This document shows positions 35,617 to 49,400 of a DNA stretch of 64,000 bases, in pieces (positions within the stretch are counted from its first letter, which is position 1; every line of letters starts with the position of its first letter). Under the pieces are notes generated by a model. It did no database searches. It saw only the letters and a list, made by a program, of their open reading frames with translations, and was not told the origin of the DNA. The translations under genes and the position numbers were made by a program. The stretch is from Massilibacillus massiliensis (GTDB taxonomy: Bacteria > Bacillota > Negativicutes > FLKF01). The stretch is taken from the NCBI RefSeq assembly GCF_900086705.1, contig NZ_LT575483.1, forward strand, positions 2,077,894 through 2,141,893, written 5' to 3'.

Positions 35617-35639
35617 AGCCCCATAAAACAAAATATTTG

Positions 35640-35737
35640 CGATACAGAACTGGCGGATCAAGTGGTTTACCACGAGGGACTGTATTGTATAAAAGTCGAC
35701 CGCCTGGGCATTGGTTTTCTATGCTCAGGCGGTTTTT
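35640..35737 (+). ncRNA. ZTP riboswitch (pfl motif) with terminator
   Basis: The aptamer shows ACTGGCGGAT (35650-35659), GTGGTTTACCACGAGGGAC (35662-35680) and the invariant CCGCCTGGGCA (35700-35710). ATACAG/CTGTAT pairs close the first domain. The CCGCCTGGGCA strand can also pair with TGCTCAGGCGG (35722-35732), giving a terminator followed by five T. ZTP or ZMP, the signal of 10-formyltetrahydrofolate shortage, should prevent termination. Upstream of pflB this is the location from which the motif was named. Confidence 0.9.
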
Positions 35738-35976: not shown

Positions 35977-38202
35977 ATGAATGTTTGGCAAGGTTTTAAC
36001 AAAGGAAAATGGCAAGAGCATATAGATGTGAGAGATTTTATACAGGTGAACTATAAACCGTATGAAGGTGAAGATACTTTTTTAGCGGCTGCAACGGATA
36101 AGACTAAAAGGGTTTGGGATAGATGTAAAAAACTATTGGAAGAAGAAAATAAAAAGGGTGTATTGGATGTTGATACAGAAATTGTTTCAACGATTACATC
36201 TCATAAAGCTGGTTATATTGATCAGGAAAATGAAGTTATTTTTGGTCTGCAAACAGATGCGCCATTAAAACGTGGTGTTATTGTCAATGGTGGTGTCCGT
36301 ATGGCTGAGCAGGCTTGTGAGGAATATGGATATAAATTAAATCCAGCGATTAAGGATGTCTACACAGATCTAGTGACTACACATAATAGTGCGGTATTTA
36401 GCGTCTATACACCGGAAATGCGCAAAGCGCGTAAGTTGGGGATTATTACAGGGCTGCCTGATGCTTATGGTCGGGGGCGTATCATTGGCGATTATCGTCG
36501 AATTGCTCTTTACGGGGTGAAGCATTTAATTACGGAAAAAGAAAAAGATTTGAATGAAATGTTTAGTAATGTAATGACAGAAGAAGTCCTGCAGCATCGT
36601 GATGAAATTGCAAAACAGATTGCAGCTTTGAAAAGCATGATTGCTATGGCTGAGGAATATGGTTTTGATATTCGTGTTCCGGCTAAAGATGCAAAAGAAG
36701 CCGTACAATGGGTGTATTTTGGGTATTTAGCAGCGATTAAAGATCAAAACGGTGCAGCAATGTCAATCGGGCGTGTTTCGACTTTCTTGGATATTTACAT
36801 TTCCCGTGATCTTGAAAATGGAATACTTACGGAAAGCGGAGCACAGGAATTGATGGATCAATTTGTAATTAAGCTTCGCCTTGCACGTATGCTGAGAACA
36901 CCGGAATATAATGAATTGTTTGCTGGAGATCCGCTTTGGGTGACGGAAGCAATTGGCGGAATTGGTGAGGATGGACGTTCGTTGGTGACGAAAAATTCTT
37001 ATCGGATTTTACATTCTTTATATAATTTAGGACCTGCACCAGAACCAAATTTAACGGTGCTTTGGTCAGATAAATTACCGCATACATTTAAAAATTTCTG
37101 TGCGCAGGTATCGATTGCTACAAGCGCAATCCAATATGAAAATGATGAAGTAATGCGCCCGGTATATGGTGATGATTATGGAATTGCCTGCTGTGTATCG
37201 GCAATGCAGTTGGGGAAACAAATGCAGTTCTTTGGGGCACGTGCAAACCTTGCAAAATCTTTATTGCTTTCGATTAATGGTGGATTGGATGAAAATACGG
37301 CGCAGCAATTGGCACCTGCAATGCCGATTGTCGATGGTGAATATTTAGAGTATGAAGTTGTACGTAAAAATTATTCTAAAGTTTTGGCTTGGTTAGCTGG
37401 TCTTTATGTCAATACGATGAATCTTATCCATTTTATGCATGATAAGCATGCATATGAAGCCGGACAAATGGCATTGCATGATAGTGAAGTAAAGCGTTTG
37501 ATGGCGTTTGGGGTTGCCGGTCTCTCTGTGGCAGTGGATTCATTGAGTGCGATCCGTTATGCGAAGGTAAAGGCAATTCGTGATGAAAATGGTATTGCAA
37601 AAGATTTCGAAATTACGGGTGAATTCCCTATGTATGGAAACAATGATCCACGGGTAGATTGCCTGGTAGAAGAAATTACGCATGAATTTATCAGTGAGCT
37701 TAGAAAGCATCCAACGTATCGTGAGGCAGAACACACTTTGTCAGTGCTTACGATTACTTCTAATGTAATGTATGGCAAGAAAACGGGTGCGACACCGGAT
37801 GGGCGTAAAGCTGGTGAAGCTTTTGCACCTGGTGCAAATCCAATGCATGGGCGTGATAAACAAGGCGCATTGGCTGCGATGAAGTCTGTAACAAATATCT
37901 CGTATGAGGATTGTCGCGATGGAATTTCGTATACATTTTCCATTGTGCCGGCAGCTCTTGGCAAAACGTCTGAGGATCGAAGCCGCAATTTGGTCGCATT
38001 ATTAGATGGATATTCTGCTTGCAAAGGGCACCATATTAATATTAATGTGTTTGACCGTGCGCTATTAGAAACTGCAATGAAGGAACCGGAAAACTATCCG
38101 CAGCTTACAATTCGTGTATCCGGCTATGCCGTCAACTTTGTAAAACTTAGTAAGGCCCATCAATTAGAAGTGATTCGTCGTACATTTTATGAAGCAGTCT
38201 GA
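35977..38202 (+). CDS. pflB: Formate C-acetyltransferase (pyruvate formate-lyase)
   Basis: A glycyl-radical enzyme that cleaves pyruvate with CoA to acetyl-CoA and formate. The 741-residue chain has the catalytic pair Cys405-Cys406 in [14 protein letters not shown] and the glycyl radical at about Gly716 in [27 protein letters not shown] and [16 protein letters not shown] are typical of true PFL rather than glycerol- or choline-type relatives. GCGAGG precedes the ATG. Its stop overlaps the activase start by 14 bases. Confidence 0.96.
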
Positions 38203-40429: not shown

Positions 40430-40458
40430 TTGACAATGATAATCATTTTCATTAAAAT
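40430..40458 (+). promoter_or_regulatory. Fur-box promoter of the haem-type operon
   Basis: TTGACA, 17-base spacer, TAAAAT. GACAATGATAATCATTTTC (40432-40450) matches 17 of 19 bases of the Fur consensus and spans the -35 and spacer, so iron-bound Fur should block the promoter. Confidence 0.8.
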
Positions 40459-40767
40459 GATGGGGAGAGAATGTATACATCTATAGATTATAGTTTCATT
40501 TTAGAAAGATTATGTAAGCATTTTGCTATATAGAGTGCGTGCATGAAGCTGAGAGTGGTAAAAGATGTATAACATAACTTTGGAAATAAAGGAGTGATAG
40601 ATAGCGTATGTTAAAAGATAGCAGGATGCGACAAAAATTTGGCTAACAATCAACACGCTCCTCAATTTACATAGAGAGAATTAAAAGTACGATGTGTTGC
40701 ACAAGGAGATGTGAAGTGGTTGGTTGCCTTCCATATGACGAGTAAAACAGTTAAGGAGCATGATGCA
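40459..40767 (+). other. long leader of the haem-type operon
   Basis: About 300 bases lie between the Fur-box promoter and the first structural gene. It contains a 12-codon frame with a good ribosome site (40608) and the inverted pair CAACAC/GTGTTG (about 40652 and 40695). No known riboswitch is recognised. Confidence 0.4.
40608..40646 (+). CDS. possible 12-codon leader peptide
   Basis: ATG to TAA frame encoding MLKDSRMRQKFG, preceded by AAAGGAGTG with somewhat long spacing. No homology can be claimed for so short a frame. Confidence 0.3.
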   Translation: MLKDSRMRQKFG

Positions 40768-41502
40768 ATGCTCAGGATAGAACATGTTTCAAAATTTTAT
40801 CAGGGAAAGCCTGTTTTAAATGATGTGTCCTTAAGAGTGGAAGCTGGAGAGGTATTTGGCTTATTAGGTCCGAATGGCGCTGGTAAAACGACGTTAATGA
40901 AAATGATTGCCGGGCTGAGCCGTCCTCACAGTGGAAGTTTATATATTTTAGGTTTAGATGGCGTTAAAGAAAGGGCTGCGATTAAGCAGAAGATTGGCTG
41001 GGTACCGCAAGAAAATAATCTAGAACGAGAATTGACTGTGCAGGAAGCCTTGACACTATATGCCTGGCTTTTTGGTGTTTCCGATGTAAAGTGTAGAGTA
41101 AAGCAAATCATGGCAGAATTTAATCTGGAAGATATGTGTGATAAAAAGACGGATACGCTGTCTGGTGGGATGGCAAGGCGGGTGCTGATCGCCAGAGCCG
41201 TATTACCTGAACCTCAAATATTGCTTTTAGATGAACCGACAGTAGGCCTTGATCCAGATGTTCGTCAAGATATTTGGGAGATGATCCGTGATTTAGCGAG
41301 TAAAGGCAAAACGATATTTATGACAACGCATTATATGGATGAGGCAGAACAGCTTTGTAATCGGTTGGCGCTTTTAAAATCAGGTAAGCTTTTACTAACG
41401 GGAACACCGGAAAAAATTAAAGATATGGCAGAAGGAAAAAATGATCCGACGTTTACCTTGGAAAAAGCCTTTTTGCGATTGATTCGAAAAGGGGTGCAGT
41501 AA
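40768..41502 (+). CDS. ABC-2 type transporter ATP-binding protein
   Basis: A 244-residue ATPase of the CcmA/DrrA type. Walker A GPNGAGKTTLMK, signature LSGGMARRVLIARAVLP and Walker B LLLLDEPTVGLDPD are complete. I start at ATG 40768, nine bases after AAGGAG; frames extend upstream to a GTG at 40711 and an ATG at 40735, but these lack proper ribosome sites. The membrane partner overlaps its stop by one base. Such pairs usually export small hydrophobic molecules; in this operon the cargo may be haem, a haem breakdown product or a siderophore-like compound. Confidence 0.88.
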   Translation: MLRIEHVSKFYQGKPVLNDVSLRVEAGEVFGLLGPNGAGKTTLMKMIAGLSRPHSGSLYILGLDGVKERAAIKQKIGWVPQENNLERELTVQEALTLYAWLFGVSDVKCRVKQIMAEFNLEDMCDKKTDTLSGGMARRVLIARAVLPEPQILLLDEPTVGLDPDVRQDIWEMIRDLASKGKTIFMTTHYMDEAEQLCNRLALLKSGKLLLTGTPEKIKDMAEGKNDPTFTLEKAFLRLIRKGVQ

Positions 41503-42236
41503 TGGGTTGTCTTGTTGTGTACTGCCGAGAAATGATTTTGATGAAGAAAAAAATGGGGAAGCTCGGTCGTGTTTTTTCGTCATTGATGTTTCCTGTAATT
41601 TATTTGTTTGCTTTTAGCTGGGGGTTAGGTGCTCGGCTGGAAGTAAGCGGGGGATATATTCCGTTTTTGGCAAAAGGAATTCTCGGGATAACGGTTATGT
41701 TGAATTCGTTTCAGCAAACTTCTCTTTCAGCCAGTGTAGGGCGTATTTATTTTAAAACATTTCAGACCTTACTTGTAAGTCCGATTTCTCTTACCCAGGT
41801 AGCATTTGGGCTGGCGTTAGCAGGTACAACGCGGGGATTATTGTTTGGTGGTCTGGTTTATGGAACAGCTTGGATGTTCTTTGATGCTCCAGGATTGAGT
41901 TCTGTGGCAGTTTGTGGGGTGATTTTATCCGCATTTTTTTTTGCCGCATTTGGGTTGGTCGTTGGTTTATGGATTGTTGACCCCGATGATCTCTCGCTAA
42001 TTAATAATTTTTTTATGACGCCGATGATTTTCTTTGGCGGTTCGTTTTTCCCAGAAGGGCATTTTCCTGCTTTGGTACGGGAAATTGTTGCGATGCTGCC
42101 GCTTAGTCTTGTAAATAGTTTATTGCGTCTGCCGATGTGGGGAGAAACTGCTGCGATGAAAGCGGGTATTTTATTGTTCTTTACTTGCTTGATGCTGTGG
42201 TTAAGTGTGAGAAAATTGGCTGCTTACAATGAGTGA
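41502..42236 (+). CDS. ABC-2 type transporter permease
   Basis: A 244-residue membrane protein with about six transmembrane helices and the ABC-2 features of DrrB/NodJ-type permeases: an amphipathic N-terminus followed by SSLMFPVIYLFAFSWGLG, and NNFFMTPMIFFGGSFFPEGHFP before the last helices. It is coupled with the ATPase gene by a TAATG overlap. A flavodoxin gene follows after 39 bases with AGGGAGAG upstream. Confidence 0.87.
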   Translation: MGCLVVYCREMILMKKKMGKLGRVFSSLMFPVIYLFAFSWGLGARLEVSGGYIPFLAKGILGITVMLNSFQQTSLSASVGRIYFKTFQTLLVSPISLTQVAFGLALAGTTRGLLFGGLVYGTAWMFFDAPGLSSVAVCGVILSAFFFAAFGLVVGLWIVDPDDLSLINNFFMTPMIFFGGSFFPEGHFPALVREIVAMLPLSLVNSLLRLPMWGETAAMKAGILLFFTCLMLWLSVRKLAAYNE

Positions 42237-42275
42237 TCAGTAATTTAACAATAGATTGAAAAGGGAGAGTGTGCA

Positions 42276-42797
42276 ATGAAGACACTTATTGTTTATTCAA
42301 GTTTAACGGGAAATACGAAAAAAGTTGCAGAAGCAATAAAAGAAGTTTTTGGTGATGAAGCGGATCTTTTTCCGGTGGAAGAAAAGCCGGACGCAAAGGC
42401 GTATGATTTGATTGCTGTCGGATTTTGGGTGGATCGGGGAACAGCCGATAAAAAAGCGCAAGCGTATATTACGGAATTACGGGAAAAGAAAGTGGCACTT
42501 TTTGCGACGTTAGGCGCATATCCGGATTCAGAACATGCACGAAAAAGTATGCAAAACGCAGGCGCATTGTTAGATGCAAGTAATCAACTGATGGGCGACT
42601 TTATTTGCCAAGGAAAAGTGAATGGAAATCTAGTGGAGAAGTTTAAAGATCTGCCACAGGGGCATCCGCATGCGATGACTCCAGAACGCATTGCTCGGCA
42701 TCGTGAAGCAGCTAAACATCCAGATGAAGCGGATTTGACAAAAGCGAAAGCAATTTTCTCAGTGATTCGTGAAAAAGTCTATGAGGATGTTTTATGA
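42276..42797 (+). CDS. Flavodoxin-family protein, electron donor candidate for HutW
   Basis: A 173-residue flavodoxin-fold protein. The FMN phosphate loop SSLTGNTKKVAEAI (about 8-21) is present; GFWVDRGTADKKAQAY and LFATLGAYPDSEHA are stretches of the subfamily that includes BilS-like and haem-associated flavodoxins. It is about 25 residues longer than a minimal flavodoxin because of a charged C-terminal helix. Its stop overlaps the radical-SAM gene start by 4 bases (ATGA), so the two are probably made together, suiting a role in reducing that enzyme. Confidence 0.85.
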   Translation: MKTLIVYSSLTGNTKKVAEAIKEVFGDEADLFPVEEKPDAKAYDLIAVGFWVDRGTADKKAQAYITELREKKVALFATLGAYPDSEHARKSMQNAGALLDASNQLMGDFICQGKVNGNLVEKFKDLPQGHPHAMTPERIARHREAAKHPDEADLTKAKAIFSVIREKVYEDVL

Positions 42798-44218
42798 CAA
42801 AGTTAAATGCTGCAGAGAACATTCGACCAACCGGCGGATTAGAAGAAATTTTTGCATCGATGGGGCCAGAGCTCTATTCGTTGGTCGTTGGTTGTGAAAC
42901 CGAGCAGCCCTTGCAGGAGTCATTTTCTGGTAAACGAGTGTTGCACAGCGATTTTAAGGGACAGCCTTTGCAGGAGACCAAATGGGCAGATATGTGGCAA
43001 GCGGCTTTAAAAGAAACGGGAAGAGGAGAGAAGCGTTCAGCGTATATCCATATTCCTTTTTGTCGGCATAAATGCTTGTACTGCGGTTTTTTTCAAAATT
43101 TTTGTCAGGAAGAGCTTGAAACTGCCTATATTGATCGTTTGATTGTTGAGTTACAGATGTATGCAGGCAGCCCTTGTTTTACAGCGCCTATTCATGCTGT
43201 ATTTATTGGTGGGGGGACGCCAAGCTGTTTATCGCCATTTAATATTGGGCGATTACTGAGAGCGATTCATACCTATTTACCGTTAGCGAATGATTATGAG
43301 TTGACACTTGAGGGGAGAATTCGTGATCTGGTTTCAGAAAAAATGGATTGCTGGTTTGAAAATGGTGTGAATCGGATATCTCTTGGGGTGCAGTCCTTTC
43401 AGACAAAAGTACGGAGAGCGGTTGGTCGGCTTGATGATCGAGAGACGGTTTTAGAACGTTTGACTGCTTTATCTGCGTATAGTCAAGCAAGCGTTATTAT
43501 TGATTTGCTTTATGGATTGCCATATCAGACAAAAGATGTTTGGCTTGAGGATGTCATGACATTGAAAGCTGCTGCAGTAGATGGCTGGGATTTATATCAA
43601 TTGAATGTTTACGAAAATAGTATGCTAAAAAAAGCAATAGAAACAGGGCGATTGCCCGCTGGAGCTGTACTTCGGGAACAGGCAGAGATGTTTGCAATGG
43701 CGCATCAGATCTTGCAGCAATGGCCTGTGAATCAAATCAGTGTTTGTCATTGGGCAAAAAGTAATCGAGAGCGCAATCTATATAATTCAGCAGCACGGCA
43801 GGGGCATACCAGATTCCCTTTTGGTGCAGGCGCCGGAGGGCGAATAAGTGGTATAGCACTAATGCAGGATCGAGATGTAAAGCGTTATATTAAGCGTATT
43901 GATGCCGGAGAAAAGCCGATTGTAACAATGCTGAAGGCACATGCATCAGCGGATTTATATGATGAAGTTAAATATCAGCTGAAGCTTGGTTATTTAGACA
44001 TTGGACAACTTGCCAGTACCTTTGATGCTCGAATTTTTGAACTTAATGTGTTGCTTAACCTATGGGAAAAGCAGGGGCTTTTGGTTCGAAGCGCGGATCT
44101 AATTCGATTAACCATTGCAGGGCAGTTCTGGTATGTAAATATGACGCAGTCAATATTAGAATGTTTAAACGCCGTATTGCATAATGGCTGGTCTTGGAGT
44201 GAGCAGAAGAAACTGTAG
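42794..44218 (+). CDS. hutW: HutW/ChuW-type radical-SAM haem-degrading methyltransferase
   Basis: A 474-residue member of the HemW-like radical-SAM group. The cluster motif C90-x3-C94-x2-C97 lies in YIHIPFCRHKCLYCGFFQN; the FFQN ending and the later RFPFGAGAGGRISG block separate HutW/ChuW from the coproporphyrin-related HemW. ChuW opens haem anaerobically, methylating it and releasing iron. The partners here, a flavodoxin and a TonB receptor behind a Fur box, fit that function. Assignment is from motifs and context; methyltransferase activity is inferred. Confidence 0.85.
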   Translation: MTKLNAAENIRPTGGLEEIFASMGPELYSLVVGCETEQPLQESFSGKRVLHSDFKGQPLQETKWADMWQAALKETGRGEKRSAYIHIPFCRHKCLYCGFFQNFCQEELETAYIDRLIVELQMYAGSPCFTAPIHAVFIGGGTPSCLSPFNIGRLLRAIHTYLPLANDYELTLEGRIRDLVSEKMDCWFENGVNRISLGVQSFQTKVRRAVGRLDDRETVLERLTALSAYSQASVIIDLLYGLPYQTKDVWLEDVMTLKAAAVDGWDLYQLNVYENSMLKKAIETGRLPAGAVLREQAEMFAMAHQILQQWPVNQISVCHWAKSNRERNLYNSAARQGHTRFPFGAGAGGRISGIALMQDRDVKRYIKRIDAGEKPIVTMLKAHASADLYDEVKYQLKLGYLDIGQLASTFDARIFELNVLLNLWEKQGLLVRSADLIRLTIAGQFWYVNMTQSILECLNAVLHNGWSWSEQKKL

Positions 44219-44335
44219 GGTGTGAAAGTATTTAAGACACATTTCGATAAGAGATATAAAAGTTTTTATAGAAATAGCCCATGTAAATTTTAATAGACCT
44301 AAATAATTTATTACACGGTGAGAGGAGATTATGAG

Positions 44336-46282
44336 TTGAAAAGACGGAAGTATCAAAGAACAGGAAAGATTGTATTAATGAGCTGCGGAATTATGATGAC
44401 ATTGAGTATGCCAGCACAGGCCGAGGAGATTTTTCAATTCGATGAAATGGTGGTGACAGCGACTCGGACAGAGCAGACGATTAGGGAAACTCCAGCAGCC
44501 GCTGAAGTCATTACACGCAAAGATATTGAAAACATGGGCGCTGATAGGTTAACGGCGGCATTGAAACTTGCTTTGAATCTAAATCTTTCCGAGGCTAGTA
44601 TGACTGGCAATCAAGTTAGCTTGCGAGGAATGAACACAGATCAAACATTGATTTTAATTGATGGGCGTAGGATGGCCGGAGAAGATGCCGGCTCTACTAC
44701 GAATGTATACGAGCTTGATCGCATTAACATTAATAATGTAGAACGAATTGAAATTATTCGAGGCCCGGTCAGTTCGCTTTATGGATCTGAAGCTTTGGGC
44801 GGTGTAATTAATATCATTACGAGGAAGTCCGAAAAGCCGCAGACCACGATTGGGATGTCTACAGGCAACTATCAACAAAATGCATCGTATCATGTTGACT
44901 TGGGCAAACAGGGAAAATGGGCATGGACGATGGATGCTTCATTTACTGATACAAAAGAAAGACGGCGCCTGAACGAAGCCGAAAAGCAAGATGAATCAAA
45001 TCTATATGGACCACGCCAGTTTTATAATTTTAGTGGTACTTATGACATTGCTGAAGGAAAGAATTTGGATGTTTACTATGAACGTCTAGGTGAGCATTTA
45101 CAAAAAGCAGATTATATTGGTAAAAGTCGAGAATATTATACGAATACAAGAGATTCTTATGGAGCTACTTATCGTGGGCAGAGTACTTTAGGAAATTATG
45201 AATTACGTACCTATTATAACGAATTAGAAAAAAATAATGATACTTTGCTAACAACGGGTAGTTATAAAGATTTTGATAGAGCAAATTATAAAACTTGGGC
45301 AATTGATGGAAAAAATACGATGAAAGTAATGGACAATCATGTATTGACGTTTGGTGGTGAATATCGAACAACGAAGTATCGTGGAACTCGTTTAGAGGAT
45401 AATGGAAAAAATGTTTCGACTGTCATTGAGCATGGAATTAGCAAATCAATCTCGGAGAAAGAGATCACATATAAAGCAGCATATATTCAGGATGAATGGA
45501 AACCGGATGATAAATTGCTGATCATTCCTTCCCTTCGTTATGATACGAGTAATAAATTTGAAGATAGCCTTAGTCCAAAACTTGGAATAACGTATCGATT
45601 CACAGATGAATTTCGATTGAAAACAAATTATGGAAAAGGCTTTAAAGCACCTAGCATAAGTGAATTGTATATGAAAATGACGCGTCATCCTCGAGCAAAT
45701 AAAACAGTTATCGTTATAGGAAATCCTGATTTAAAACCAGAAAAATCAACAAGTTTTGATATCAGTTTAGAAGGCGAGAAAGGAGCAAGTTTTGGTAAGT
45801 TAACATATTTTGATAATGATGTTAATGATTTAATTGATACGAAAAGTTCAACTACTGGCACTGTTTCCACAGCAAAGTATTTTAATATTGAAAAAGCGAG
45901 AATTAAAGGGGTTGAACTAGAAGCAGGACGGCATCTTTCGGACAAATTTACAGTAAAGACCTCATATACTTATTTAGATGCAAAAAATTCAATAACTGGT
46001 GAAGTTTTAGAGGATCGGGGCAAACATAATTATTCTATCCAGGTACATTATGATGATGTTCAAAGTAGCGGTATCAGCAGTATGCTTTGGTATAATTGGG
46101 TGCGTGATTACCACTATGAAGAAAAAGATTATAATTATGGTACGTTGAATTTTACATTGAATAAAAAATGGGATGAGCATTATAGTACCTATGTTGGGGT
46201 TGATAATATATTGGGCAAGGAAATTAATGATCTTACCTTGGAAGGACGTTTCTGGCGTGTTGGAATGAATTATACATTTTAA
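44336..46282 (+). CDS. TonB-dependent outer-membrane receptor, probable haem receptor
   Basis: A 648-residue outer-membrane beta-barrel receptor. A signal peptide (about 1-30, ending MPAQAEE) is followed by a TonB box-like FDEMVVTATRTEQ, the plug domain (about 35-155, with LIDGRRMAGEDAG and RIEIIRGPVSSLYGSEALGGVINI) and the barrel (about 160-648), ending in a terminal aromatic F as expected for BAM insertion. The start is TTG 44336 behind GAGGAG; the ATG at 44331 is followed by an early stop. Clear proof that the host has an outer membrane. Ligand inferred from HutW and Fur box. Confidence 0.92.
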   Translation: MKRRKYQRTGKIVLMSCGIMMTLSMPAQAEEIFQFDEMVVTATRTEQTIRETPAAAEVITRKDIENMGADRLTAALKLALNLNLSEASMTGNQVSLRGMNTDQTLILIDGRRMAGEDAGSTTNVYELDRININNVERIEIIRGPVSSLYGSEALGGVINIITRKSEKPQTTIGMSTGNYQQNASYHVDLGKQGKWAWTMDASFTDTKERRRLNEAEKQDESNLYGPRQFYNFSGTYDIAEGKNLDVYYERLGEHLQKADYIGKSREYYTNTRDSYGATYRGQSTLGNYELRTYYNELEKNNDTLLTTGSYKDFDRANYKTWAIDGKNTMKVMDNHVLTFGGEYRTTKYRGTRLEDNGKNVSTVIEHGISKSISEKEITYKAAYIQDEWKPDDKLLIIPSLRYDTSNKFEDSLSPKLGITYRFTDEFRLKTNYGKGFKAPSISELYMKMTRHPRANKTVIVIGNPDLKPEKSTSFDISLEGEKGASFGKLTYFDNDVNDLIDTKSSTTGTVSTAKYFNIEKARIKGVELEAGRHLSDKFTVKTSYTYLDAKNSITGEVLEDRGKHNYSIQVHYDDVQSSGISSMLWYNWVRDYHYEEKDYNYGTLNFTLNKKWDEHYSTYVGVDNILGKEINDLTLEGRFWRVGMNYTF

Positions 46283-46389: not shown

Positions 46390-46424
46390 CTAGGGGAGCC
46401 GCATAAAGAATGCGGCTCCCCTAG
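46390..46424. terminator. strong hairpin between the receptor and the TetR gene
   Basis: Perfect CTAGGGGAGCCGCAT and complementary arms with a five-base loop, between converging genes. The T-run is short. Confidence 0.8.
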
Positions 46425-46452: not shown

Positions 46453-47112
46453 TTATTCTTCTTCGGACCAGAAGGCCTTTAACCGAAGGCTTCCTTCCGG
46501 CAGCTGAAATAAATTTTCAAATAATCTTTCTGCGATATGTACTTTGCTCTTTATAATTTGTATATCTGTTTCATGCCCGTAAGTCGTGGGTGAACTGGAT
46601 TCTAATAAGGCGGCCATGATTCCATTGAAAAAAGCTAGGCTTTCTTCCATTCTTGTCACCTTGGAAACGCCTTCCTGATTGCATTGTTCAAGAATAGAAA
46701 TTAAGATTGGGCTAGTCGCGGTGAGTGTCAACCTCCAGAGCTTATTGATCAGGATACCTTGCTTTTCTTTGTACAATACATCGCTGATTTGTCCGACGAT
46801 ATCTTTATGACATAGGTAGTAAAAGAGATTTATAAATAAAGTCAGTTTATCTAAGGCAGTTGCATTTATCAGTTCTGTAGACTGCATTTTTTCAATCGTT
46901 TTATTAATGTGACGTATTGTGATTGCTTCGAGAATAGATTCTTTTGAATTATAGTAATAGTAAAAGGTTCCTTGTGCTACATTCACTTTACGTACGATAT
47001 CTTGTACGGTTGTTTGTAGATAACCAATGGAAAGAAATAATCCTTGTGCCGCATCCATAAGCTCTGCTTGCCGAATTAAAGGATCTTTTGAAATTCTAGA
47101 AATGATGAACAC
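46453..47112 (-). CDS. TetR-family transcriptional regulator
   Basis: A 219-residue regulator. The helix-turn-helix lies at about 14-60 (MDAAQGLFLSIGYLQTTVQDIVRKVNVAQGTFYYYYNSKE is its frame, cited by parts: TTVQDIVRKV, GTFYYYYNSKE). The C-terminal ligand domain is undefined. The most likely start is GTG 47112 next to AGG; no ATG fits. It sits between two Fur-box TonB loci and may control one of them or its own gene through the dyad at 47129. Confidence 0.85.
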   Translation of the reverse strand: MFIISRISKDPLIRQAELMDAAQGLFLSIGYLQTTVQDIVRKVNVAQGTFYYYYNSKESILEAITIRHINKTIEKMQSTELINATALDKLTLFINLFYYLCHKDIVGQISDVLYKEKQGILINKLWRLTLTATSPILISILEQCNQEGVSKVTRMEESLAFFNGIMAALLESSSPTTYGHETDIQIIKSKVHIAERLFENLFQLPEGSLRLKAFWSEEE

Positions 47113-47272: not shown

Positions 47273-49172
47273 TTAAAGTTTTTGCTCTAAGCCGACATAG
47301 AAGCTCCGTCCAGGCATTGGATAGGCTCCAATATTTTTGAATTTGCCTCCACTTCTTATTTCATAGCTTTCGTTGGTTAAGTTATACCCTTTCATAAATA
47401 AACGACTATCCGGTGTCATTTGATAATTTAAATTTAGATCTAATGTTGTATATGCTGAGGAGGAGAAGGTTTGTGTGTTGCGTCCGCTGATATGACGCAG
47501 TGTGATGTCAGAACTAAATTTATCTTGTGTATATTGTAGGCCAAGATGATAGAAATTTGGTTGGTTATTATTTTTATCATTGCTATAGTCGGTGGAATCG
47601 GCAGTTTTATTTTTAATGCTTACATAGGAATAACCTCCCGAAACATTCCATTTAGGTGAAAGCTGGTGCGATAAAGTAAGACCGGCACCTTTGCGTTTTT
47701 GCTGATCGATATTGAGTGATTTTGTGCGTGGACCTTGCGTATCATAAGCAATGGCATTTTCAAGACGACTGCTAAAAATGCTTGTCTGTAGTTTTGTTCC
47801 ATTTCCTAAGGTCGTATTTAATCCTAAAGTAACGGTATCTCCCGATTCTGGCTTTAGGTTAGGATTACCAATCATAAATTCGGTGTCGCTGTATAAATCT
47901 TCAATTAACGGTGCTTTGATAAATTGCCCCCAAGAGAGATAAACATTTGATTTTTGATCCAATTGATGGTTGACTGTCACACGTGAAGTTTGGTGTCCGC
48001 CGATAAAACTATGATTGTCATAGCGAGTGCCTAGTGTCATATTCCAGTCATCTGATAATTTCCATAAATCCTCAATAAAAATTGCTTTAGAATTGTAGGT
48101 TTTTTGGATTCCTTGCGAAGGGTAATCGAATTTATCTTTGCGATAATCTGTTCCTGTCGTTAGGGTATGACGTTCGTTGAGTTTAAAGCTGTTCTGCCAG
48201 TTAAAACCTTGCTCTTTTCGGTCGATGGAATAGTTAGACGTTTCATCACGATAGGTATCGTTTGAGGCATGATTTTGATAAATTTGCACAAGATTATTTT
48301 TACCGTAATTGTAAGTCAATGCAATATTATCATTATTGGACTTGGTGTGACCATTTGGGTAATAAGACGTATAGCCAGGTGCTGCAAAAGTAAAGTCTCC
48401 GTCACGGTCATTATGATCAAAATAAAAAGAAATTGAACGATCGTTATCTAAGTCTTGATCAAGTCGCATAGTTAAAGAATTTTCGTCATAACTGGTCTGG
48501 GTAAAGGTTCTGTTGCTGTTCGTTTTGGCATCTTTATAACGATAATTGCCACGTTTCTCTTTTCCAGCAGTAACAAAATAACTGAAGCCATTATCCGTTT
48601 TATCTCCTGTTGTGATGCTATAACGTTGTGTGCCCCAACTGCCGAATTCGGTCTTTACAGAGGTAGAAGCTTTGGTAGCTTTGCGTGTGATGATATTGAT
48701 TACACCCCCGGCTGCATCACTGCCGTAGAGAGAAGAGGAAGGTCCGCGTACGACTTCAATACGCTCAATATTTTCAACGTTTAAATTGTTTAAATTTACG
48801 CCTTTACTGCCGCTTTTCACAATCTGATCCCAGTTCATTCTGCGCCCATTGACTAAAACTAAAACGCGCGAATCGCCTGATTGGTTGAGAACCGGAGCTG
48901 TCTTCTTCGATATTTATATTATTTTTTCGTAAAATATCTGGCACTGTGCTAAAGTTACCCTGTTCGATTTGCTCTTGCGTGATGACGGTTACATTGGCCG
49001 CTGTTTCTGTAATTTTTACAGGGATTCGGTTGGCAGTAATGACGTATTCCTCCATTTCAAAGGCCGGATCAGGTTCGTCACTGGAGGTTTCCGCGAAAAC
49101 GAGGGAAGGAACGCCAAATAATAAATGTGTAATAATTAGAGAAGATAATAATTGCTTTTTCTTTTGTGTCAT
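47273..49172 (-). pseudogene. TonB-dependent receptor gene broken by a frameshift
   Basis: Two minus-strand frames make one receptor. The first (49172 to 48804, 122 codons) has a signal peptide (LLSSLIITHLLFGVPSLVFA), a TonB box-like EEYVITANRIPVK and the plug start VPDILRKNNINIEE. The second contains VLVLVNGRRMNWDQ, RIEVVRGPSSSLYGSDAAGG and the whole barrel, to the terminal EQKL. Reading frame changes by one base between about 48881 and 48910; after it the continuation GDSRVLVLVNGRR is intact. No long homopolymer is present there. AAGGAG precedes the ATG and a Fur box lies upstream. It may be a decaying gene, a reversible off-state or a sequencing error. Confidence 0.85.
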
Positions 49173-49284: not shown

Positions 49285-49303
49285 TGAAATGATTATCATT
49301 ATC
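49285..49303 (-). promoter_or_regulatory. Fur box upstream of the broken receptor gene
   Basis: On the minus strand GATAATGATAATCATTTC matches the Fur 19-mer except near its end. It lies about 115 bases before the receptor start. Confidence 0.8.
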
Positions 49304-49400
49304 ACATGGATAAGATTATAAAGTCTAGATAATTTTTGGTCAAGGCTTTATAATTTTATTTTTAGAAATTTCTAAAATGAAATAGGAGGTATTTATATTA

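What the first reader, a model, noticed from the sequence alone, without database searches (positions are those of the whole stretch)
40430..46282. Fur-controlled anaerobic haem operon with an ABC-2 transporter in an outer-membrane Firmicute
A Fur-box promoter precedes an ABC-2 ATPase and permease, a flavodoxin, a HutW/ChuW-type radical SAM protein and a TonB receptor. HutW/ChuW enzymes open haem without oxygen. The flavodoxin overlaps hutW by 4 bases, hinting at a dedicated reductant. The ABC-2 pair is not a normal importer, so it may export the linear tetrapyrrole or excess haem. This would be a complete uptake, ring-opening and disposal module.
Basis: partly seen in the sequence, partly recalled or inferred. 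Interest (0 to 1): 0.65.

Follow-up and report, generated by a model that had tools for sequence, protein, structure and literature searches.

The report
Anaerobic haem-iron operon with ABC-2 transporter
An iron-starvation operon for stripping iron from haem without oxygen carries, like its relatives in this bacterial class, an unstudied ABC transporter pair that may pump out the spent haem ring, while its inner-membrane haem importer genes have been lost.

Summary
Five same-strand genes (40768-46282) follow a TTGACA-N17-TAAAAT promoter with a double Fur box in its spacer. HutW passes its curated model. The flavodoxin is not a dedicated reductant: it carries the diagnostic residues of Fusobacterium FldH/HmuF (haem trafficking, anaerobilin reduction), and hmuW-hmuF pairing is already published.

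The new part is the ABC-2 pair. In 300 genomes of the class, 36 permease orthologues stand clearly apart; 22 lie in a hutW locus, in rearranged gene orders, against 0 of 20 sister-family permeases. Ten of the other 14 lie beside tetrapyrrole metal chelatases. A sister family, with a member in this genome, is cobalamin-riboswitch linked. The fold is of the exporter type (KpsM/Wzm).

"Complete module" is wrong: all 21 relatives keep the inner-membrane importer; here hmuTUV is deleted, leaving the promoter and an hmuV tail with stop codons. A second hmuTUV lies elsewhere under a Fur-like box.

Most likely the pair exports a haem-derived tetrapyrrole, probably the reduced ring-opened product. Substrate and direction are inferred. 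Both branches are tied to scarcity signals, which argues against excess-haem export. Nine paper searches found no report of it.

The parts
40430..40458 (+). Promoter TTGACA-N17-TAAAAT with double Fur box (40431-40451) in the spacer
   Evidence: 40430-40479 is 82% identical to the same place in the nearest relative
40697..40767 (+). Remnant of the 3' end of hmuV (in-frame stops), the scar of a deleted hmuTUV importer
   Evidence: nucleotide alignment to L066 from 4891 on, i.e. inside hmuV; frame reads CEVVGCLPYDE*NS*GA against CEQLVCLPHDICNSHGA
40768..41502 (+). ABC-2 transporter ATPase (DrrA/NodI-like)
   Evidence: PF00005 128.5 bits; TIGR01188 241 bits, below its cut-off 312
41502..42236 (+). 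ABC-2 permease of a Negativicutes tetrapyrrole-operon family
   Evidence: PF01061; 36 orthologues in 300 genomes; contexts; model pLDDT 86, best solved match KpsM TM 0.72
42276..42797 (+). HmuF/FldH-type haem-binding flavoprotein
   Evidence: 8g64 E 9.1e-26, the only solved relative; His132 (= FldH His134) invariant in 17 of 17
42794..44218 (+). HutW/ChuW/HmuW radical SAM anaerobilin synthase
   Evidence: TIGR04107 483.6 bits, cut-off 400; CxxxCxxC at residue 90
44336..46282 (+). TonB-dependent outer-membrane receptor (haem inferred from context)
   Evidence: PF00593, PF07715; TIGR01785 232.8 and TIGR01779 231.8 bits, both below cut-off
46390..46424 (.). Strong terminator-like hairpin (15 pairs) between this operon and the convergent TetR gene
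   Evidence: listed on the - strand

Best explanation
This is a Fur-repressed operon for taking iron from haem without oxygen. Inferred order of events: the TonB receptor brings haem (ligand inferred) into the periplasm; an importer encoded elsewhere, such as the Fur-boxed hmuTUV paralogue, brings it into the cytoplasm because the operon's own hmuTUV has been deleted; the HmuF-type flavoprotein binds haem and hands it to HutW; HutW opens the ring and frees iron; HmuF reduces the reactive product. The ABC-2 pair most likely exports a haem-derived tetrapyrrole, probably the reduced ring-opened product, out of the cytoplasm. Shown here: gene identities, Fur-box promoter, deletion of hmuTUV, conserved linkage of the ABC-2 pair with hutW and hmuF, exporter-type fold (predicted). 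Inferred: substrate, direction, and the haem ligand of the receptor.
For: HutW over curated cut-off. HmuF diagnostic residues present in 17 of 17 aligned. ABC-2 orthologue lies in the hutW locus in 22 of 36 cases, 0 of 20 in the sister family (Fisher p 2e-6 without correction for relatedness), and it stays linked in two different gene orders, hmuTUV-ABC2-hmuF-hutW-receptor and hutW-tonB-hmuF-ABC2-receptor. Fur boxes in 17 of 21 hutW-linked loci against 2 of 14 of the other orthologue loci. Fold nearest to KpsM, with Wzm, TarG, ABCG and CcmB further down the list. The window operon kept the ABC-2 pair when it lost hmuTUV and a binding protein. In three loci the ABC-2 pair or hutW sits beside RND or MacB efflux pumps or HlyD adaptors (L077, L087, L207).
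Against: Many hutW loci lack the pair: 101 of 300 genomes have HutW over cut-off and 22 of these have the pair in the same locus. Several have the same hmuTUV-F-W-receptor order simply without it (L202, L203, L205, L212), so it is not needed for HutW. The window genome's own second hutW-hmuF locus lacks it. Ten of 36 orthologues lie beside CobN, ChlI/D or CbiK chelatases, none with hutW, so the family as a whole does not follow ring opening. Among positions conserved in the hutW branch, the script flagged only L21 and L201 as differing in the chelatase branch. No substrate data exist.
Confidence: 0.5

Rival explanations
1. The ABC-2 pair exports intact haem or protoporphyrin, protecting the cell while haem uptake is switched on, as HrtAB, PefCD or ABCG2 do.
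For: Orthologues beside chelatases, which leave the ring closed, suggest a closed tetrapyrrole as substrate. Haem and PPIX efflux ABC pumps are known (PMC12670364, passages). ABCG2 and CcmB are among the weaker fold matches.
Against: It is tied to iron scarcity (Fur) and, in the sister family, to a cobalamin riboswitch, that is, to scarcity. The haem efflux pumps in the passages read are induced by haem itself. HmuF already buffers haem (by analogy).
Confidence: 0.2
2. The pair is an uptake or membrane-handling accessory: it moves haem inward or between leaflets and may now stand in for the lost hmuTUV.
For: Relatives encode it directly after hmuV or among the uptake genes; the window operon lost hmuTUV yet kept the pair and the receptor. 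Scarcity control in both branches fits uptake better than detoxification.
Against: 21 of 21 hutW-linked relatives keep a FecCD importer beside it, so an importer would be redundant. The fold is that of exporters. The window genome has another hmuTUV with a Fur-like box.
Confidence: 0.17
3. The pair exports something else needed when iron or cobalt is scarce, such as a metal-binding ligand.
For: Same scarcity logic in the Fur branch and the cobalamin-riboswitch branch; TonB receptors and FecCD importers nearby could retrieve such a ligand.
Against: No ligand-making genes were recognised in the neighbourhoods annotated, though most unlabelled ORFs were not searched.
Confidence: 0.1

Closest known systems
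Fusobacterium nucleatum hmuTRUVWF operon (PMC10404700)
   Same: Contiguous radical SAM anaerobilin synthase and HmuF flavoprotein in a haem-uptake operon with a TonB receptor; Veillonella, a Negativicute, is listed there too
   Different: The ABC-2 pair is not mentioned in the passages read; in the window hmuTUV is deleted
E. coli O157 chuW/chuY and V. cholerae hutWXZ (PMC12670364 passages)
   Same: Anaerobic haem opening by a HutW/ChuW enzyme; hutWXZ is described as Fur-regulated
   Different: ChuY or HutX/HutZ in place of HmuF; no ABC-2 pair in the passages read
HrtAB and PefCD haem/PPIX exporters (PMC12670364 passages); CcmAB (recalled)
   Same: ABC transporters acting on haem or porphyrin
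   Different: HrtB belongs to another permease type (recalled); haem-induced rather than Fur-linked; no direct sequence comparison was made
KpsMT, WzmWzt, TarGH, NosFY ABC-2 transporters
   Same: Same fold (Foldseek TM up to 0.72, about 14-17% identity)
   Different: Polysaccharide, teichoic acid or NosZ-maturation roles
HmuS dechelatase systems of Bacteroidota (PMC12583661, one passage)
   Same: Haem receptor and iron-removing chelatase together; resembles the setting of the chelatase-linked orthologues (CobN kinship of HmuS is recalled)
   Different: No ring opening; relation of the Negativicutes CobN-like proteins to HmuS not tested

Membership tests
HutW/ChuW/HmuW anaerobilin synthase | Match above curated TIGR04107 cut-off | tested here: met
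   483.6 bits against 400
HutW/ChuW/HmuW anaerobilin synthase | Radical SAM CxxxCxxC motif | tested here: met
   CRHKCLYC from residue 90
HutW/ChuW/HmuW anaerobilin synthase | Opens haem to anaerobilin | not testable with these tools
   needs enzyme assay
HmuF/FldH haem-binding flavodoxins | Haem-ligand His134 and linker residues Ala147, His150, Pro151, Asp155; His89 at FMN (FldH numbering) | tested here: met
   His132, Ala145, His148, Pro149, Asp153 and His87, invariant in 17 of 17 (residues named in PMC10404700)
HmuF/FldH haem-binding flavodoxins | Adjacent to hmuW | tested here: met
   4-base overlap
BilS flavodoxin (NF045594) | Above curated cut-off 155 | tested here: not met
   135.1 bits
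ABC-2 (type V) exporter | PF01061 permease with separate ATPase | tested here: met
   genes overlap by one base
ABC-2 (type V) exporter | Fold of KpsM/Wzm/ABCG | tested here: met
   predicted model
ABC-2 (type V) exporter | Outward transport of a tetrapyrrole | not testable with these tools
   needs transport assay
TonB haem receptor | Above TIGR01785 cut-off 316.85 | tested here: not met
   232.8 bits; TonB-B12 nearly equal at 231.8, also below cut-off
TonB haem receptor | Conserved histidine between FRAP and NPNL boxes (motif recalled) | tested here: inconclusive
   FKAP and NPDL present with a His between in the window, but that His is not conserved in the operon relatives
Fur regulon | Fur box overlapping the promoter, conserved in relatives | tested here: met
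Haem-uptake operon with inner-membrane importer | hmuTUV in the operon | tested here: not met
   FecCD gene present in 21 of 21 hutW-linked relatives, absent in the window, with hmuV scar

The most novel reading that the evidence does not exclude
The ABC-2 pair belongs to a previously unrecognised family of tetrapyrrole transporters of outer-membrane Firmicutes, with a Fur-controlled haem branch built into hutW-hmuF operons and a cobalamin-riboswitch-linked branch beside cobalt-type chelatases; in the haem branch it is the exporter of ring-opened haem, a missing last step of anaerobic haem catabolism.
Probability: 0.35. Interest if true: 0.7.

Novelty: new variant of a known kind. Interest (0 to 1): 0.5.

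Why it matters
What becomes of the linear tetrapyrrole made by HutW/HmuW enzymes after its reduction is not addressed in the passages I read of the HmuF paper ('export' and 'efflux' do not occur in its main text). A conserved, Fur-linked transporter pair in the operon gives a direct genetic handle. The parallel linkage of close relatives to chelatase loci offers a comparison that can separate 'moves haem or porphyrin' from 'moves ring-opened product'.

Tried and rejected
Dedicated reductant role of the flavodoxin: rejected on homology to HmuF/FldH. Chance neighbour: rejected on the class survey. FRAP-His-NPNL as proof of haem specificity: dropped, His not conserved. RND-sized ORF beside HutW in L218: turned out to be a GGDEF/EAL protein. 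Sister-family permeases were meant as a neutral control, but 15 of 20 of those loci had CbiK, ChlI/D, CobN or FecCD neighbours, so they are a control for hutW linkage only, not for tetrapyrrole context. Cobalamin riboswitches near orthologues without hutW (3 of 11 loci scanned: L077, L079, L082) do not lie directly upstream of the pair there, so I do not claim control of those pairs. Papers: nine searches gave no paper that joins an ABC-2 pair to HutW/HmuW, judged from listings and the passages read; the library lacks most subscription journals and the terms were few.

Count correction: the 'sister' line wrongly included the window itself (21 entries). Without it, 3 of 20 sister loci carry a Fur-like site with up to 2 mismatches, and 5 sites in all (9 minus the window's 4, which are listed).

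Full report
What is there. The promoter TTGACA-N17-TAAAAT at 40430-40458 is an equal-best match in the region (11 of 12) and carries overlapping Fur sites at 40431 and 40437. Promoter-like matches as a whole are not in excess in that region (27 found, 28.9 in shuffles), so the weight rests on the Fur box and on conservation: 40430-40479 is 82% identical to the nearest relative, while the bases just upstream are not similar.

The flavodoxin. Its only solved relative is 8g64 (E 9.1e-26), which I take to be FldH of Fusobacterium nucleatum (chain length 172 against the paper's 169 residues, and the register of His134 fits). The paper (PMC10404700; abstract, passages and the crystal-structure section read) reports that FldH and HmuF bind haem, that His134 is the ligand in FldH, that they pass haem to HmuW and reduce anaerobilin, and that HmuF does not act as an ordinary flavodoxin. 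The window protein has the equivalent His132 and the linker residues; these are invariant in 17 of 17 aligned. The 4-base overlap therefore points to haem delivery and product reduction rather than to a dedicated reductant. The BilS model is not met (135.1 of 155 bits).

The ABC-2 pair across the class. In 300 genomes drawn from the class, HutW is over cut-off in 101 genomes. The permease search splits cleanly: 36 matches at 193 bits or more (44% identity or more) and then nothing until 115 bits (34% or less). I fetched the surroundings of the 35 other than the window and annotated all 36 with reference proteins: HutW in 22 of 36, HmuF in 22, FecCD importer in 27, TonB receptor in 27. The 22 are 22 different genomes in nine family labels. 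As a control I took 20 of the sister-family matches (115 bits or less): HutW in 0 of 20 (Fisher p 2e-6; not corrected for shared ancestry). Order varies: hmuTUV-ABC2-hmuF-hutW-receptor in Sporomusa-type loci, and hutW-tonB-hmuF with ABC2 and receptor further on in Selenomonas-type loci. Named records from a separate scan show the same settings in Propionispora, Sporomusa, Anaerospora, Selenomonas and Mitsuokella; many of these are the same genomes, so they add names rather than independent counts. All matches of 41% identity or more there carry names within the Negativicutes apart from one 'Bacillota bacterium'.

Orthologues without hutW. Of the other 14, ten lie beside CobN/ChlH, ChlI/D or CbiK, two (L089, L090) among FecCD and TonB receptors, and two (L086, L098, short contigs) beside nothing recognised (Pfam). 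The ten chelatase-linked permeases fall in one clade (100/99, with L086) set apart from the hutW-linked ones; the sister family is a third group (100/100) (long branches flagged by the program). Fur sites with up to 2 mismatches occur in 17 of 21 hutW-linked loci (window left out) and in 2 of 14 of the others. No Rfam match of any kind was found in the 9 hutW-linked loci scanned of 21; cobalamin riboswitches were found in 3 of 11 loci without hutW and in 9 of 10 sister-family loci scanned, including the window genome's own sister pair, where it lies just upstream of the ATPase (L101). Those sister loci were chosen because they had chelatase or importer neighbours, so 9 of 10 is not a rate for the whole sister family.

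What that says about function. Both branches are tied to tetrapyrrole operons and both are linked to scarcity signals (Fur, cobalamin riboswitch). That weakens 'export of excess haem', which one would expect to be haem-induced, and it also means that disposal of a linear tetrapyrrole cannot be the role of the whole family. In the hutW branch a waste product is made exactly when Fur lifts, and the predicted permease fold is that of exporters (pLDDT 86; KpsM TM 0.72, then Wzm, TarG, ABCG, CcmB among others). I therefore commit to export of the haem-derived product as the most likely role, at about one in two, with haem or porphyrin export and uptake assistance as live rivals.

The window operon is a reduced version. 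All 21 hutW-linked relatives have a FecCD importer gene in the locus; the window has none. Against the nearest relative (L066), the window aligns at 40430-40479, then from 40697 to 44151, then again from 44320: it lacks the stretch holding hmuT, hmuU and most of hmuV, and a second binding-protein gene between hutW and the receptor. The alignment resumes inside the hmuV 3' end, which in the window has stop codons. The nearest hmuU in the genome (62%) lies in an SBP-HmuV-HmuU set with a Fur-like box upstream. A second hutW-hmuF locus (47% identical HutW) with importer genes and a receptor but no ABC-2 pair lies elsewhere. So uptake is probably supplied in trans, and the pair is not required for every HutW.

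hutW loci without the pair. Twenty such loci were fetched from the genomes over the HutW cut-off, most of them high in the list. Several show the same order with the pair simply missing between hmuV and hmuF (L202, L203, L205, L212). One (L207) has a HlyD adaptor and an RND pump right after hutW on the same strand, a possible substitute, not pursued.

Literature. hmuW-hmuF pairing and its biochemistry are known. Nine searches of the open library found no paper that joins an ABC-2 pair to HutW or HmuW. Hence 'new variant of a known kind'.

Noticed in passing
G000 C6 636964-637647 (L101) and L168-L187: Sister ABC-2 family, often in cobalamin-riboswitch operons with CbiK, binding protein and FecCD importer; role unknown
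   Followed up: partly
L082 593-12120; L085 103-8233; L173 from 3432: Nitrogenase-like NifH/NifD/NifK-type genes near CobN, ChlI/D or CbiK chelatase genes and ABC-2 genes, some after cobalamin riboswitches; in L082 none of the three reaches a curated model cut-off; possibly an undescribed tetrapyrrole reductase
   Followed up: partly
window 47273-49172, - strand: Second TonB receptor split by a frameshift (or sequencing error) near 48820, with a Fur-like box at 49290-49304 upstream; its full-length paralogue is in the second hutW locus
   Followed up: partly
window 46453-47112, - strand: TetR-type regulator convergent with the operon; no curated model reached
   Followed up: no
window 35636-35716: ZMP/ZTP riboswitch upstream of the pyruvate-formate-lyase-like gene at 35977
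   Followed up: no
L207 1979-6616: RND pump and HlyD adaptor directly after hutW, same strand
   Followed up: partly
L074 11810-12715 and 10 other hutW loci: ChaN-like haem-binding protein (PF04187) gene at the end of many hutW operons, absent in the window
   Followed up: no
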